DNA of 64,000 bases from Natronorubrum tibetense GA33 (GTDB taxonomy: Archaea > Halobacteriota > Halobacteria > Halobacteriales > Natrialbaceae). Location of the stretch: contig NZ_KB913017.1 in assembly GCF_000383975.1 (NCBI RefSeq), forward strand, positions 3,634,265-3,698,264, written 5' to 3'. Under the pieces are notes generated by a model. It was not told where the DNA came from. It saw only the letters and a list, made by a program, of their open reading frames with translations, and did no database searches. Both the position numbers and the translations under genes were made by a program. Shown in pieces: positions 42,590 through 47,330 of this stretch (position 1 is the stretch's first letter; every line of letters begins with the position of its first letter).

Positions 42590-43462
42590 TCACTCTCTCA
42601 GTGAGAGGGGAGCGAGCGAGGCGAACAGAGCCTCCTCCGTTCGCACGACCTCGCTTCCCTGGTCCGGAACCGTATTTAGCCAGAGGTCGAACCCCGGATC
42701 GGCAGTGGGTTCGACTCCGTCGTCCGCGTCGCCCGTTCCATCCGCGGGGGCGACAGCGGAAGCCTCGATGTCGAGGATGTCCGGCAGCCCTCGTTCGGGC
42801 GCCCCGAACGCGACGGTCATCCCGTCCCGTTCGACGCGTCCGGCCAACGTCTCGAGCCGCCCGACGGTGAGATTCTCACCGAACCGGGAAGCTGCGATAC
42901 GGACGCCGGCGTCCTCACGGCCGAGTGCTGCGGAGAGGTCCGTCCGCTCGACCGACAATCCCGGAAGGGGATCGTCGACGAGTTTCGCCCGGACCGGTCG
43001 TCGCGAAGAGATCCTGACGGTCACGCGCTCCCCCTCTTCGACCTCCATTTTCGGAGGAACGTTGAGGGAGATCGGGTGTTGCAAGCCGCAATTGACCCGG
43101 ACGCGCCCTTCAGGTCCGACCTCGGTCACGATTCCTTGTCTTGACGACCCCGAACCGTCAGATTCGGAGCCGGTCTGTGACATGGCGCGGAGCGGCGGCA
43201 GGATGCCCGCATACTCCAGTTCGTCCCGCATCCCCCATGCCTCGTTGCGGAGGTATGGCGGCGTTGCGGCGTACCGCAAGACGGTGCTTACGAACCCGCC
43301 GTCGAATCGCCCGGTTTCGCCATCCCGGTCGGGATAGACGATTAGGCGATCGGCCCGGAAGATCGTCGCCGCGCGGGCGACGTATCCGAGTTTGCGAGTT
43401 GCCTCGCGTTTGTCCTCGGCTTCACGGGTGAGCGACGACGGGACGAGTATGCTGACGGTCAT
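42590..43462 (-). CDS. SPOUT-family putative RNA methyltransferase (C9orf114/DUF171-like)
   Basis: 290 aa. TVSILVPSSLTREAEDKREATRKLGYVARAATIF-RADRLIVYPD opens the alpha/beta-knot domain and VSTVLRYAATPPYLRNEAWGMRDELEYAGILPPL is diagnostic of this family. An OB-like insertion (QGIVTEVGPEGRVRVNCGLQHPI) follows. The C-terminal knot region has VAFGAPERGLPDIL, expected to bind S-adenosylmethionine. Conserved upstream of rpl3 in archaea. Human and yeast relatives are reported to methylate rRNA N3-uridine; the target here is unproven. Confidence 0.88.
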   Translation of the reverse strand: MTVSILVPSSLTREAEDKREATRKLGYVARAATIFRADRLIVYPDRDGETGRFDGGFVSTVLRYAATPPYLRNEAWGMRDELEYAGILPPLRAMSQTGSESDGSGSSRQGIVTEVGPEGRVRVNCGLQHPISLNVPPKMEVEEGERVTVRISSRRPVRAKLVDDPLPGLSVERTDLSAALGREDAGVRIAASRFGENLTVGRLETLAGRVERDGMTVAFGAPERGLPDILDIEASAVAPADGTGDADDGVEPTADPGFDLWLNTVPDQGSEVVRTEEALFASLAPLSLRE

Positions 43463-43768: not shown

Positions 43769-43839
43769 GCGCTGGTAGTGTAGTGGTATCACGTGACCTT
43801 GCCATGGTCACAACCTGGGTTCAAATCCCAGCCAGCGCA
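43769..43839 (+). tRNA. tRNA-Gly (anticodon GCC)
   Basis: 71 bases. Acceptor stem GCGCTGG/CCAGCGC, discriminator A; anticodon stem TGACC/GGTCA around loop TTGCCAT gives anticodon GCC. T-arm CTGGG-TTCAAAT-CCCAG. No intron, no encoded CCA. Its 3' half is repeated four more times downstream, marking it as an integration target. Confidence 0.95.
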
Positions 43840-44202
43840 CTTCTGCGGCGAACAACTCCGACGAGCACCGCGTAGCGTGTGCTCGTCACTCGTGAGCCGT
43901 GAAGTCGCTCTGGGTTTGAATCAGGTCAGTCGCAGCGCCGATCGGAGGGAGGCGACCGTCTGACCGTGGTTCAAATCCCAGCCAGCGCATTTCTCTGAAC
44001 ACAACACCACGAGCATTGCGTAGCAATGCGAGTATCCGTGTTCGGAGAAATCGTTCTTGAATTTGAATCAGACTGAGGTTCTGCGAGCGTAGCGAGCAGG
44101 TTCTCAGGCGTGGTTCAAATCCCAGCCAGCGCATTTCTACGGCGAACAAACTCGTGAGCGACAGAAATCGTCCTATATTTGAGTCATGGTAGTCTCGTCA
44201 GT
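43817..44202 (+). repeat. Tandem repeats of the tRNA-Gly 3' end with diverged spacers
   Basis: The 22-base tRNA-Gly 3' end (GGTTCAAATCCC then AGCCAGCGCA) recurs exactly at 43968-43989 and 44112-44133, at 151- and 144-base steps. Each copy is followed by a related spacer: a hairpin built on GCGTAGC (for example CATTGC-GTA-GCAATG), an AAATCG-like block and TTTGAATCAG. This looks like successive duplications or decayed att sites. Reading frames here that repeat MRWLGFEPR are only the reverse strand of the tRNA end. Confidence 0.8.
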
Positions 44203-44829
44203 TTATTCTGTATTATGATCGGTTCTAACGTGACCAGGATACGAGGTCGGGGTGATTTCGATGTTAGCCTCCGGGTCTATCGTGTCGATCCAGAGCTCTT
44301 CAGTCGGAGTAATGAAGATCGAAGTGCCGGCCCATGATGGAGCGGTGTCGCTCGTGATTTCCCATTCGAACGTTTCCGTATACCCCGTTTCCAGTTCGGC
44401 TTCCACCTCGTATGTTCCGCGTCGCTGCACCAGATTGGAGAGTACAGCGAGATACAGATGGTTCTCAACCGTTTCGGAATATACCTCCTCGGGTTGGGAG
44501 TCGTCCATGAACCGCACCGTTAGGTCAACGTCGTACTCGTCCCCAGTCACATTGTAGACTTGAAGTTGGGCAGCTGAGCCGTGTTCTGAGACTGTGACGT
44601 TCTCACCGTCATCGGAACTCTTGTACGGATCGTCGGCACCAACGAGAGTGATCCAGTCGTACGGGATTCGCATGTGGAAGTTCGAGTCAACAAAATGCAC
44701 TACCGTAGGATTGTTTCTACCGGTACTGCTTCCACACCCGTGACCGTATTCTTCATCTTCTCGTACTCCGCCCATCGATGACTCGTCTTCACACCAGTGC
44801 TTCGCTCTCCCGCTGATGGAGGTGGTGAA
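44203..44829 (-). pseudogene. C-terminal half of a lipoprotein gene split by the TnpB element
   Basis: The frame is open from the end of the insertion element (TTC codon at 44829) through about 208 residues to 44203; the apparent ATG at 44775 is internal. It reads FTTSISGRAKHWCEDESS, then GHGCGSSTGRNNPTVVHFVD, IRIPYDW-like MRIPYDWITLVG, and a beta-rich end (QLQVYNVTGDEYDVDLTVRFM, YEVEAELETGYTETFEWEI). This has the look of a secreted haloarchaeal domain. Same strand as the truncated lipoprotein on the other side of the element, so the two were probably one gene of about 330 codons. Function unknown. Confidence 0.6.
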
Positions 44830-44832
44830 TCA

Positions 44833-44853
44833 CCCCGCCCTCAAGGGGCGGGG
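44833..44853 (-). ncRNA. Right-end hairpin, probable 3' part of the TnpB guide (omega) RNA
   Basis: 8-base GC stem with a 5-base loop overlapping the tnpB stop codon. In this family the RNA covering the tnpB 3' end and element right end guides TnpB, with the guide segment taken from the flanking DNA; by that rule the guide here would be read from the lipoprotein sequence below 44827. Confidence 0.45.
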
Positions 44854-46079
44854 CTTCCCGTTTCTACGACGTGACTTGCAGACACTCGCTGGAAATCAGC
44901 GGTGTCCGTAGCGGTCACAGTCTCCACGGGCGTTGATTCGGGCCATCCCAGCCCTAATTCAGCAAAACCGCGCTTCAATACGTTCATTGCCGCGTTCGCA
45001 TCCCTATCCGTCTCAAATCCACACGATGGACATGAGTGTTCACGAACCCAGATTGGCTTCGCTGTCTCCACACCACAACACGCACACTCTTTCGTTGTTC
45101 CACGAGCAGGCGCTTGCACGACGTGTGTACCGTACAAGTCGCCCTTGTATTTGAGCAAAGTGATGAACTGTCGCCACGCCACATCCTGCTTGTTCCGAGC
45201 ATTCTCGTCCCCTTGAAGCATACCAGCGACGTTGAGGTCTTCCACGAACACGGCGTCGTACTCTGTGACGAGCCACGTCGTCAACTTGTGCTGGTAGTCA
45301 AGTACCTTCCGGCGAATCTTCCGTTTTACCTTGGCAACTGTTCGGCGTTGTTTCTCGTAGTTGTTCGACCCGTGTTGCTTCCGGGAGAGTTTGCGTTGTT
45401 CGCGGCGGAGTCGTTCGTATTCGTCTTCGAGGTCGAGCCAATCCACTGTCTTGCCGTCACTCGTGTGGATGTAGTTGAGGATCCCAAGGTCGATTCCCAC
45501 GCTGTTGCTCGCGTCGAGTGAGTCTAACGCGGGTTTCTCGGGAACGTATTCGTCGTCGGTTTCGAGGCTGAATGAGACGAACCACTCGCCAGTCGTCTCC
45601 TTTTTCAGCGTGACTTCTTTGATAGTAGCGTGGTCAGGGAGTGGTCGGTGGTAGCGAATCTTCACCCAGCCGACTTTACTGAATCGCACGTAGGCGTACC
45701 CGTCGCGCCCCCTCTTGTTATCGAGGTCGAAGCCTGACTGGTTGTACGTGACACTTCGGTACTCGCTGGGTGATTGCCGTTTGAGCCACCCGACTTTCTG
45801 TCCCTTCTTTTTCTTTTTTCGAAGGTTCGAGAGGTTTCGGTGGAAGCGTGCGACGGTGGCTTGAGCAGCTTTTGAGTGTAACTCGCTGAACACGGGCCAC
45901 TGTCGCTTCCACTCGGGAAGCTTGTTGTTCTGGGCGTATTCGCTTGGTTTGTCGTCGGGACTGTTCGTGTAGTCCCATTTGACGTGGTTGTAGAGTTGGC
46001 GATGAACGTTGATGTGATGTTCAGCAGCCATCGCTACCTCGTTGCTTGGGTAAGCGCGGTAACGGTGGCTGTGTTCCAT
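44841..46079 (-). CDS. tnpB: TnpB, RNA-guided DNA endonuclease of an IS605-type element
   Basis: 412 aa, full length. RuvC-like catalytic residues are intact: D197 (VGIDLGI), E280 (VFVEDLNV) and D360 (TDRDANAAMNV). The zinc ribbon uses C332/C335 and C350/C353 (CACC, CPSC). N-terminal wedge-type region and basic bridge (NLRKKKKKGQK) are present. TnpB proteins are guided by an RNA from the element's right end and cut the empty donor site, favouring element retention. No transposase TnpA is encoded, so movement would need one in trans. Sits inside a lipoprotein gene. Confidence 0.93.
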   Translation of the reverse strand: MEHSHRYRAYPSNEVAMAAEHHINVHRQLYNHVKWDYTNSPDDKPSEYAQNNKLPEWKRQWPVFSELHSKAAQATVARFHRNLSNLRKKKKKGQKVGWLKRQSPSEYRSVTYNQSGFDLDNKRGRDGYAYVRFSKVGWVKIRYHRPLPDHATIKEVTLKKETTGEWFVSFSLETDDEYVPEKPALDSLDASNSVGIDLGILNYIHTSDGKTVDWLDLEDEYERLRREQRKLSRKQHGSNNYEKQRRTVAKVKRKIRRKVLDYQHKLTTWLVTEYDAVFVEDLNVAGMLQGDENARNKQDVAWRQFITLLKYKGDLYGTHVVQAPARGTTKECACCGVETAKPIWVREHSCPSCGFETDRDANAAMNVLKRGFAELGLGWPESTPVETVTATDTADFQRVSASHVVETGSPAP

Positions 46080-46153
46080 CGCTGTCTACGTGTTTGACCC
46101 GTTTTTACTTATTAGTGTGTATCTGGGGCTTCCTATCGGATTCATCCCCGAGG

Positions 46154-46528
46154 TCAAGCCTCGGGGTATTCTCCTGTACCGCTGATAAAATAGTAGCCGT
46201 GGTCAGTTTCTCTCAACAATTCGATTGCAAGTGGTTTGATACTGAGTTCGACAACGTCTCGATCGTCAACGCTGCCCACGTGGCCTTCGTGGTGTTCACT
46301 CACATCTTCCCCAAGCAATTCGTTGTAGATCCGGTGCTCTTCGTACATTTCGACGTACGATTGAGCCGAGTCTCGGTCCACTGATTCGGGTGGCTCCGGC
46401 ATCTCCTTGAGTTCGTCGTAGACGTGAACATCTTCTGGGGCCGTGTAATTTTTCCCGCCTGGATCTTGTTCTGACAGGCATCCTGCGAGTAGCGCTGGGG
46501 TGAGTGCGAGGAGGGCACGACGCTGCAT
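46154..46528 (-). pseudogene. N-terminal part of a lipoprotein gene, truncated by the TnpB element
   Basis: Starts MQRRALLALTPALLAGCLSEQDP: a short signal with lipobox LAGC at about residue 17. The mature part (DELKEMPEPPESVDRDSAQSYVEMYEEHRIYNELLG..., ending GYYFISGTG) looks like a secreted haloarchaeal domain. The last codons, EYPEA and the stop, are encoded by the left-end hairpin of the insertion element, so the natural protein was longer. The continuation lies at 44203-44829. A secreted truncated product is possible. Confidence 0.7.
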
Positions 46529-47330
46529 ACCCGTTATTTTGTAGGCTTGTCAATAAGTATTCATGACCAGTCGTAGCTGTTCCGTCTGTGTCCTGTGCGT
46601 AGCGTAGGGACCTACGCGAAGACGGAGACAAACAGGGCATCATGGTCGAATAGTACTGCACCGCACCAGAATTCCTCTCGCTGTCGTGTCGTCTTATCTA
46701 CTATTGGGCCAAACTCTTTCCGTGCGGCTAATTCCGCTTATTGTTGTCTCTGTGGAGGCCTATCAGACCCCTCAGCCAGCGCATTGCTGTCGCGAACAAA
46801 TCCGCAAGCGAGAACGATAGAAATCGAATCTGGATTTGAGGTAAACGACTCGCACACAGCGAAGTGAGCATACCTAGACGTCGTTCAACTCCCAGCCAGC
46901 ACGCGTATCTAATGATTACTCGTGGATCCGGCAACTATTCTCGAGCCCGAGCTCCCTCCCTCGAGAGGCACAACCGAGAACCAAACTGGCCATCGAGGCA
47001 GTGAACGACTGATTACGTCGGAGATTGTGAAGAACAGTGGCGTGTGACCGTCTCAAAGAGTTATTTCGCTACGAGGCGATATCGGCTCGCTAACAGGCGA
47101 AGACGTCGTTTTTAAAGTGGAACGACAAGTCTACGCTCGGTAACACGTGATTGTACTGACGGGACGACAGAAATATCCGCAGAACTCACCATCAATAAGA
47201 GGATACTATCCGACTGATCGAACAGTTCCCACAGGTCTTGGGTCAAAATCAGTAACCAATACCGCCTGCGATTGGCTTTTATAGCGTGGCTTGCTACGGG
47301 TAAATGGACAATTGAACTCGTGATTTAGCA
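46529..47330. other. Gene-poor stretch with tRNA-Gly 3'-end remnants
   Basis: About 800 bases without a supported gene. It holds two more partial tRNA-Gly 3' ends (about 46773-46783 and 46883-46904) and, near its end, the TATA-like TTTTATAGCG (47276-47285) that probably serves the HalOD1 gene. The rest shows no structure I can interpret. Confidence 0.5.
46773..46904 (+). repeat. Distal tRNA-Gly 3'-end copies
   Basis: CAGCCAGCGCA (46773-46783) and GTTCAACTCCCAGCCAGCACGC (46883-46904, about two changes from the tRNA end) flank a spacer with CGCGAACAAATCCGCAAGCG and AGAAATCG...TGGATTTGA. That spacer matches the type following the tRNA-proximal copies. They mark the far edge of the island at about 3.1 kb from the tRNA. 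Confidence 0.65.

What the first reader, a model, noticed from the sequence alone, without database searches (positions are those of the whole stretch)
43817..46904. tRNA-Gly island with five copies of the tRNA 3' end and no integrase
The 22-base tRNA-Gly 3' end is repeated exactly at 43968 and 44112 and in degenerate form at 46773 and 46883, all in the same orientation, with related spacers (GCGTAGC hairpin, AAATCG block, TTTGAATCAG). The first two steps are almost equal (151 and 144 bases), which a single integration would not produce. Either several elements integrated and were lost, or the tRNA end plus spacer is itself a repeating unit that amplifies. The spacer resemblance between near and far copies favours one recurring element family.
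Basis: partly seen in the sequence, partly recalled or inferred. Interest (0 to 1): 0.75.

Follow-up and report, generated by a model that had tools for sequence, protein, structure and literature searches.

The report
Mobile hairpin cassettes after haloarchaeal tRNA genes
The repeated tRNA-Gly ends are one case of a previously undescribed family of small two-hairpin DNA cassettes that sit behind many tRNA genes of salt-loving archaea, each ending in a copy of that tRNA's own 3' end, and that come and go between closely related species.

Summary
About half of the tRNA genes in this Natronorubrum-group genome (22 of 45; 23 of 43 in a close sister; 0 of 33 in six non-halobacterial genomes) are followed within 250 bp by a copy of their own T-arm 3' half. 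The copy ends a ~95-180 bp unit made of hairpin A, then hairpin B. B's left arm is complementary to that tRNA's T-loop and T-stem, and its right arm is the tRNA 3'-end copy.

Units stand singly or in arrays, with the best copies next to the tRNA (17 arrays to 0). Neighbouring units are no more alike than random ones, which rules out simple tandem amplification. Between sister species about 96% identical at the window locus, whole units are present or absent exactly at the tRNA end at five tRNAs. A and B modules are exchanged separately, with breaks at the inverted T-loop arm. Hairpins favour the tRNA-sense strand and carry GNA triloops.

Ordinary integrase islands at these tRNAs look different and sit between tRNA and array. 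Best reading: non-coding mobile cassettes using the T-loop as recombination site, probably as folded single-stranded DNA. The enzyme is unknown. No description was found in the open-access library.

The parts
43769..43839 (+). tRNA-Gly(GCC), host gene of the array; its last 20 nt TTCAAATCCCAGCCAGCGCA are the repeated sequence
43840..43989 (+). Unit 1 (150 bp): hairpin A, inverted arm, hairpin B, exact copy of the tRNA 3' end
43840..43904 (+). Hairpin A of unit 1 (CTTCTGCGGC...GCCGTGAAG, inner hairpin tip CCGCGTAGCGTG; the tip is inverted in the sister genome G005)
43910..43920 (+). Inverted arm CTGGGTTTGAA, complementary to the tRNA T-loop and T-stem 3' strand
43970..43989 (+). Exact copy 1 of the tRNA-Gly 3' end (right arm of hairpin B plus acceptor 3' strand)
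43990..44133 (+). Unit 2 (144 bp): hairpin A of another type (TTTCTCTGAACAC...GTGTTCGGAGAAA), inverted arm, B hairpin GACTGAGGTTCTGCGAGCGTAGCGAGCAGGTTCTCAGG, exact copy
44056..44067 (+). Inverted arm of unit 2 (CTTGAATTTGAA)
44114..44133 (+). Exact copy 2 of the tRNA-Gly 3' end
44134..46783 (+). Disrupted third unit: degenerate A hairpin and inverted arm (44134-44183), ~2.6 kb with three ORFs, remnant copy CAGCCAGCGCA at 46773-46783; the stretch 44147-46850 is missing in sister G005
44203..44775 (-). ORF of 190 aa, no Pfam match; with 46154-46528 probably parts of one gene split by the insertion element
   Evidence: the single-gene reading is inference
44841..46079 (-). TnpB (IS1341/IS605 OrfB type, PF01385 and PF07282), no TnpA beside it; a later insertion, not part of the units
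46154..46528 (-). Lipoprotein-like ORF of 124 aa, N-terminal part
46784..46903 (+). Distal degenerate unit: A hairpin, inverted arm CTGGATTTGA, B remnant, copy with 3 mismatches (46884-46903); the flank after it is shared with sister G005

Best explanation
A family of non-coding mobile cassettes specialised for tRNA 3' ends in Halobacteria. Each is about 95-180 bp and reads: hairpin A; a T-stem/T-loop sequence in inverted orientation; a variable hairpin core; then a direct copy of the host tRNA's 3' end, whose T-loop closes hairpin B. SHOWN from sequence: the architecture, concentration at tRNA 3' ends, tRNA-matched arms, a sense-strand bias of the hairpins, polarity (best copies nearest the tRNA), whole-unit presence/absence exactly at the tRNA end, and separate exchange of A and B with breaks at the inverted T-loop. 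INFERRED: a cassette circle (A - inverted T-loop - B - direct T-loop) recombines with the T-loop of a tRNA gene or resident cassette at either core. Recombination at the direct core adds a unit at the tRNA end; at the inverted core it inserts B'-copy-A' between a resident A and B. The outer T-stem arms stay behind, so a B core can move to another tRNA and still appear with matching arms. The strand bias and GNA triloops suggest that the substrate is folded single-stranded DNA of the tRNA-sense strand, handled in trans by a recombinase not yet identified (tyrosine type more likely than Y1/HUH type). The tRNA stays intact because its 3' end is restored.
For: Own genome: 27 of 45 tRNAs show copy plus inverted arm, and complementarity covers T-loop and T-stem and falls to chance beyond position 12. 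A-motif: 16 of 19 genome matches lie 0-300 bp after a tRNA on its strand; one B core occurs 7 of 7 times right behind tRNAs, at five tRNA genes of the own genome. 23 A-motif loci beside tRNAs in public genomes are all Halobacteria. Whole-unit differences exactly at the tRNA end between sisters: Met, Leu(TAG), Val(CAC), Arg(GCG), Cys. A kept and B replaced at Phe, Arg(TCT), Ala(CGC); A replaced and B kept at Ser(TGA), Thr(TGT). Only 5 of 20 tRNAs with parsed units in both species keep the same unit. Polarity 17:0. Sense strand more stable: B 125:26, A 108:39; B orientation 518:2. GNA loops 35% vs 0.6% in controls. A-arm covariation 8.3 vs 5.97 pairs, 0 of 2000 re-deals. Neighbouring units not alike.
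Against: No enzyme was linked to the units and no circular form has been seen. Tyrosine recombinases and Y1 transposases are present in unit-rich and unit-poor genomes alike. Most sister differences can also be read as deletions between short direct repeats in a larger ancestral array; which lineage gained or lost was not polarised with a third species. Double-stranded circles of ~100 bp are an unlikely recombinase substrate, hence the single-strand inference. Sequences in the strand and loop statistics are related, so those p values are too small. A transcribed RNA hairpin would also give a sense-strand bias.
Confidence: 0.5

Rival explanations
1. No dedicated enzyme: homologous or microhomology-mediated recombination and gene conversion among the many short T-arm repeats shuffles, deletes and occasionally spreads hairpin modules between tRNA loci.
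For: All breaks lie in short repeats (T-loop, inverted T-loop). The whole-unit and module differences can be drawn as deletions between direct repeats of a larger ancestor, e.g. Gly and Phe arrays. Arms common to all tRNAs allow conversion between loci.
Against: Deletions alone cannot sustain arrays; the repeats are only 12-20 bp; neighbouring units are dissimilar; polarity is strict (17:0); units sit almost only at tRNA ends.
Confidence: 0.25
2. The units are functional RNA: 3' trailers of tRNA transcripts (terminator, processing or regulatory hairpins), kept by selection and occasionally duplicated.
For: Sense-strand bias, covariation, fixed position right after tRNAs; hairpin part of a copy outlives the acceptor part (Tyr, Gln, Ser, Thr).
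Against: Absent from about half of the tRNA genes of the same genome; turned over at 15 of 20 tRNAs between sisters; does not explain copying of the unpaired acceptor strand; GNA triloops rather than GNRA/UUCG loops.
Confidence: 0.12
3. IS200/IS605-like (Y1/HUH) mini-elements: single-strand circles with two hairpins whose target is chosen by base pairing between an internal guide (the inverted arm) and the tRNA T-arm.
For: Two hairpins, one strand, no coding capacity, like PATEs; Y1 genes in all five genomes tested.
Against: PATEs do not duplicate target, whereas units end in a 20-nt copy; only 2-3 Y1 genes per genome, two of three broken in the own genome.
Confidence: 0.1
4. Remnants (attR scars) of successive integrated islands at tRNA-Gly.
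For: Direct repeats of a tRNA 3' end are the classic island mark.
Against: Narrow 95-180 bp size range, same two-hairpin content at about half of all tRNAs, real islands have other ends and longer duplications.
Confidence: 0.03

Closest known systems
Integron gene-cassette arrays (attC sites recombined as folded single strands by IntI)
   Same: Tandem cassettes added next to a fixed site, imperfect hairpins conserved in structure more than sequence, one orientation, strand bias (integron facts from established knowledge)
   Different: No gene in the cassettes, anchor is the tRNA T-loop rather than attI, core GTTCAAATC does not fit GTTRRRY, arrays present at many tRNA genes at once, no linked integrase
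Palindrome-associated transposable elements (PATEs) and IS200/IS605 elements of haloarchaea (PMC3119063)
   Same: Short, non-coding, hairpins near both ends
   Different: PATEs cause no target duplication and are dispersed; these units end in a copy of the tRNA 3' end and were found almost only behind tRNAs
tRNA-targeted integrative elements with XerC/D integrase (PMC8371274, PMC7921747)
   Same: Direct repeat of a tRNA 3' end, tRNA stays intact
   Different: Kilobase size with integrase, 30-55 nt duplications, no A/B hairpins; they insert between tRNA and its cassette array
REP/BIME palindromic repeats of bacteria
   Same: Extragenic small palindromic modules in variable combination
   Different: Not tied to tRNA ends and without tRNA-matched arms (REP facts from established knowledge)
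Palindromic motif 10 bp downstream of Methanopyrus kandleri tRNA genes (PMC5217627)
   Same: Hairpin-forming motif behind about half of the tRNA genes of an archaeon
   Different: Short fixed palindrome, no tRNA 3'-end copy, no arrays, reported as specific to M. kandleri

Membership tests
Integron cassette array | attC core sites RYYYAAC / GTTRRRY | tested here: not met
   Cores read GTTCAAATC and GATTTGAAC/A; position 4 is C, not R
Integron cassette array | IntI-type integrase gene next to attI | tested here: not met
   No integrase ORF in the interval; the nearest tyrosine recombinase genes of the own chromosome are at 3404255 and 3982308, far from the window array at 3678033
Integrative island scar (att repeat) | Repeat flanks kilobase element with integrase; ends shared with islands | tested here: not met
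   Units of 95-180 bp; genuine islands have other ends
PATE / IS200-IS605 derivative | No target duplication | tested here: not met
   20-nt tRNA 3'-end copy at the end of each unit; definition
PATE / IS200-IS605 derivative | Moved by a Y1 transposase | not testable with these tools
   Y1 genes exist in the genomes, no link to the units
Ordinary tandem repeat / satellite | Neighbouring units more alike than distant ones | tested here: not met
   A 0.60 vs 0.52, B 0.59 vs 0.58
CRISPR array | One constant repeat with unique non-repeated spacers | tested here: not met
   Repeat differs with each tRNA; the 'spacers' are reused structured modules
Rfam RNA family | Match to a curated family | tested here: not met
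   Only tRNA and an L4 leader match in the window

The most novel reading that the evidence does not exclude
Haloarchaea carry a class-wide, integron-like but gene-free recombination system that uses the near-universal tRNA T-loop as its attachment site and adds single-stranded hairpin cassettes behind tRNA genes with polarity.
Probability: 0.35. Interest if true: 0.92.

Novelty: categorically new. Interest (0 to 1): 0.8.

Why it matters
About half of the tRNA genes of these organisms carry a fast-changing, structured, non-coding cassette that annotation leaves blank or calls a partial tRNA. If the mechanism holds, it is a second natural case, besides integrons, of cassette recombination on folded single strands, with a target (the T-loop) present in every tRNA gene. 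It gives a ready test system in genetically tractable haloarchaea. It would also explain the 'partial tRNAs adjacent to the full tRNA' reported in passing in Haloferax (PMC7921747).

Tried and rejected
Scars of integrated islands: rejected after reading two real islands. In-situ tandem amplification: rejected. Viral or plasmid origin: the A motif in viral contigs is never beside a tRNA; a B core gives one viral hit, in unrelated sequence with no tRNA on the contig piece, and another none; the only plasmid hit is the tRNA-Gly region duplicated on the N. bangense megaplasmid. Units as a conserved RNA family: no Rfam match. Identifying the enzyme by presence: Y1 and tyrosine recombinases occur in every genome tested, so not discriminating; a chromosomal XerC/D-like protein shared with the sister (L444) is a lead only. 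Literature: the M. kandleri motif and Haloferax partial tRNAs are the only related mentions found; most subscription journals were not searchable.
Full report
CHECK. The window is a haloarchaeal chromosome (Natronorubrum group: the same-genus genome G006 has contig lengths equal to the N. bangense records). tRNA-Gly(GCC) lies at 43769-43839. Its last 22 bases recur exactly at 43968 and 44112 and in degraded form at 46773 and 46884. Chance gives none. Spacing is 150 and 144.

ANATOMY. Units from many relatives show one plan. Directly behind the tRNA comes hairpin A, usually TTTCT-stem-GARCAA-n-CGYGA-stem-AGAAA, sometimes with a second hairpin inside. Then comes a short linker ending in an inverted T-arm sequence such as CTGGATTTGAA, then a variable palindromic core, then a direct copy of the last 20 bases of the host tRNA. 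Inverted arm and copy pair, so B is a long hairpin whose right foot is the tRNA's T-loop and T-stem. In the own genome complementarity covers positions 1-12 of the 20-base end, i.e. T-loop plus T-stem, and falls to chance in the acceptor part. The arms follow the tRNA: TTCGAAT tRNAs have ATTCGAA arms, TTCAAAT tRNAs have ATTTGAA arms. At Leu(TAA) both arms of the hairpin carry the other T-loop version than the tRNA itself, a paired change.

SPREAD. I fetched all tRNA loci found in the own genome. By a lenient test 27 of 45 have copy plus inverted arm; by a strict test 22 of 45 have a copy within 250 bp, against 0.05 expected in shuffled sequence. By the strict test the sister G005 has 23 of 43, a sample of six other haloarchaeal genomes 6 of 33, and six genomes of the same phylum outside Halobacteria 0 of 33. 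An A-motif scan of public genomes gave 23 loci beside tRNAs, all Halobacteria, at 11 kinds of tRNA. A strict A motif was found in only 2 of 148 phylum genomes, both haloarchaeal; a looser one exceeds its reversed control mainly in the own family and some others. So the family is richest in the own family and patchy elsewhere in the class. In the own genome 16 of 19 A-motif matches lie within 300 bp behind a tRNA on its strand. One B core occurs seven times in the two sisters, always right behind a tRNA.

MOBILITY. G005 is 95.7% identical over 5.4 kb up to and into the tRNA-Gly array. Yet of 20 tRNAs with parsed units in both, only 5 keep the same A and B. Five tRNAs show a clean whole-unit difference starting at the tRNA 3' base. 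Met: own +106 bp, the sister flank follows the tRNA directly. Leu(TAG): sister +129. Val(CAC): own +181. Arg(GCG): own +136. Cys: sister +101. Elsewhere only one module changed. At Phe the first 76 bases including the inverted arm are identical and B is new, and a B like the sister's sits after an inserted copy and A. Ser(TGA) and Thr(TGT) kept B and changed A. tRNA-Gly of the window shows the same kind of shuffle, and its A-hairpin tip is inverted relative to the sister. In arrays the copy nearest the tRNA is never worse than the last one (17 better, 17 equal, 0 worse). Neighbouring units are not siblings.

STRAND. Folding favours the tRNA-sense strand for B (125:26) and A (108:39), and related B cores are in the same orientation (518 pairs against 2). 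Loops closing B are C-GNA-G in 88 cases on the sense strand; among perfect hairpins GNA makes 35%, against 0.6% in control DNA of the window. d(GCGNAGC) is known, from established work on DNA hairpins recalled here and not looked up, as an unusually stable DNA triloop; the RNA counterpart is not. I take this as a hint for single-stranded DNA, not proof. A arms covary: 8.3 of 10 pairs against 5.97 when arms are re-dealt, 0 of 2000. Sequences are related, so p values are indicative.

NOT ISLANDS. Two kilobase elements with XerC/D-type integrase inserted at arrayed tRNAs (8.1 kb at tRNA-Gly, L334; 6.9 kb at tRNA-Leu, L335) duplicate 30-55 bases, have no A or B at their ends, and lie between the tRNA and its older array.

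MECHANISM. The data ask for recombination at two cores per unit, the direct T-loop at the tRNA end and the inverted T-loop inside. A circle of A, inverted core, B and direct core would insert a full unit at the tRNA end, or B-copy-A inside a resident unit; both kinds of arrangement are seen. Because the T-stem arms lie outside the cores, a B core can move to another tRNA and still appear with matching arms, which explains one B core at two Val, two Ser and one Thr tRNA. The enzyme is not identified. Loss between short repeats certainly can happen too, and a purely homologous account is the main rival.

KNOWN WORLD. Papers mention partial tRNAs next to full ones in Haloferax gibbonsii and a different palindrome behind M. 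kandleri tRNAs. Nothing describing these units was found in the open library searched, which lacks most subscription journals. A review notes that an archaeal XerA binds stem-loop att structures weakly, a lead for the enzyme. I rate the kind as categorically new because every membership test of a known kind that could be run failed; the mechanism is open.

IN THE WINDOW. Units 1 and 2 are intact. The third holds 2.6 kb with a TnpB insertion, apparently inside a lipoprotein gene, missing in the sister. The distal unit is the old end of the array, shared in position with the sister.

Noticed in passing
43014-43113 (-): Rfam L4-Archaeoglobi leader (RF03135, 74.7 bits) lies inside the RNA methyltransferase-like ORF 42590-43462 rather than in a leader; possibly a coding-sequence match.
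   Followed up: no
L009, L045, L046: Natronorubrum bangense carries the ribosomal protein operon plus tRNA-Gly pair and its units on both the chromosome and the 828-kb plasmid.
   Followed up: partly
43840-43904 and L044: The tip of hairpin A is exactly inverted between sister species (CCGCGTAGCGTG vs CACGCTACGCGG) while the rest is nearly unchanged.
   Followed up: partly
43886-44149 (-): Antisense ORF containing RWLGFEPR, a spurious protein made from tRNA 3'-end copies; likely source of false annotations.
   Followed up: no
L444 (G000:C1:56500-59500): XerC/D-like recombinase of 383 aa with a near-identical counterpart in the sister (L445); candidate enzyme, untested.
   Followed up: no
L015 unit 3: A unit of another build (CTCCCACTTTTTCCGAGG...), also seen behind tRNA-Gly(CCC) of G047 (L440): perhaps a separate cassette type.
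   Followed up: no
44841-46079 (-): TnpB without TnpA, apparently inserted in a lipoprotein gene inside the disrupted third unit.
   Followed up: partly
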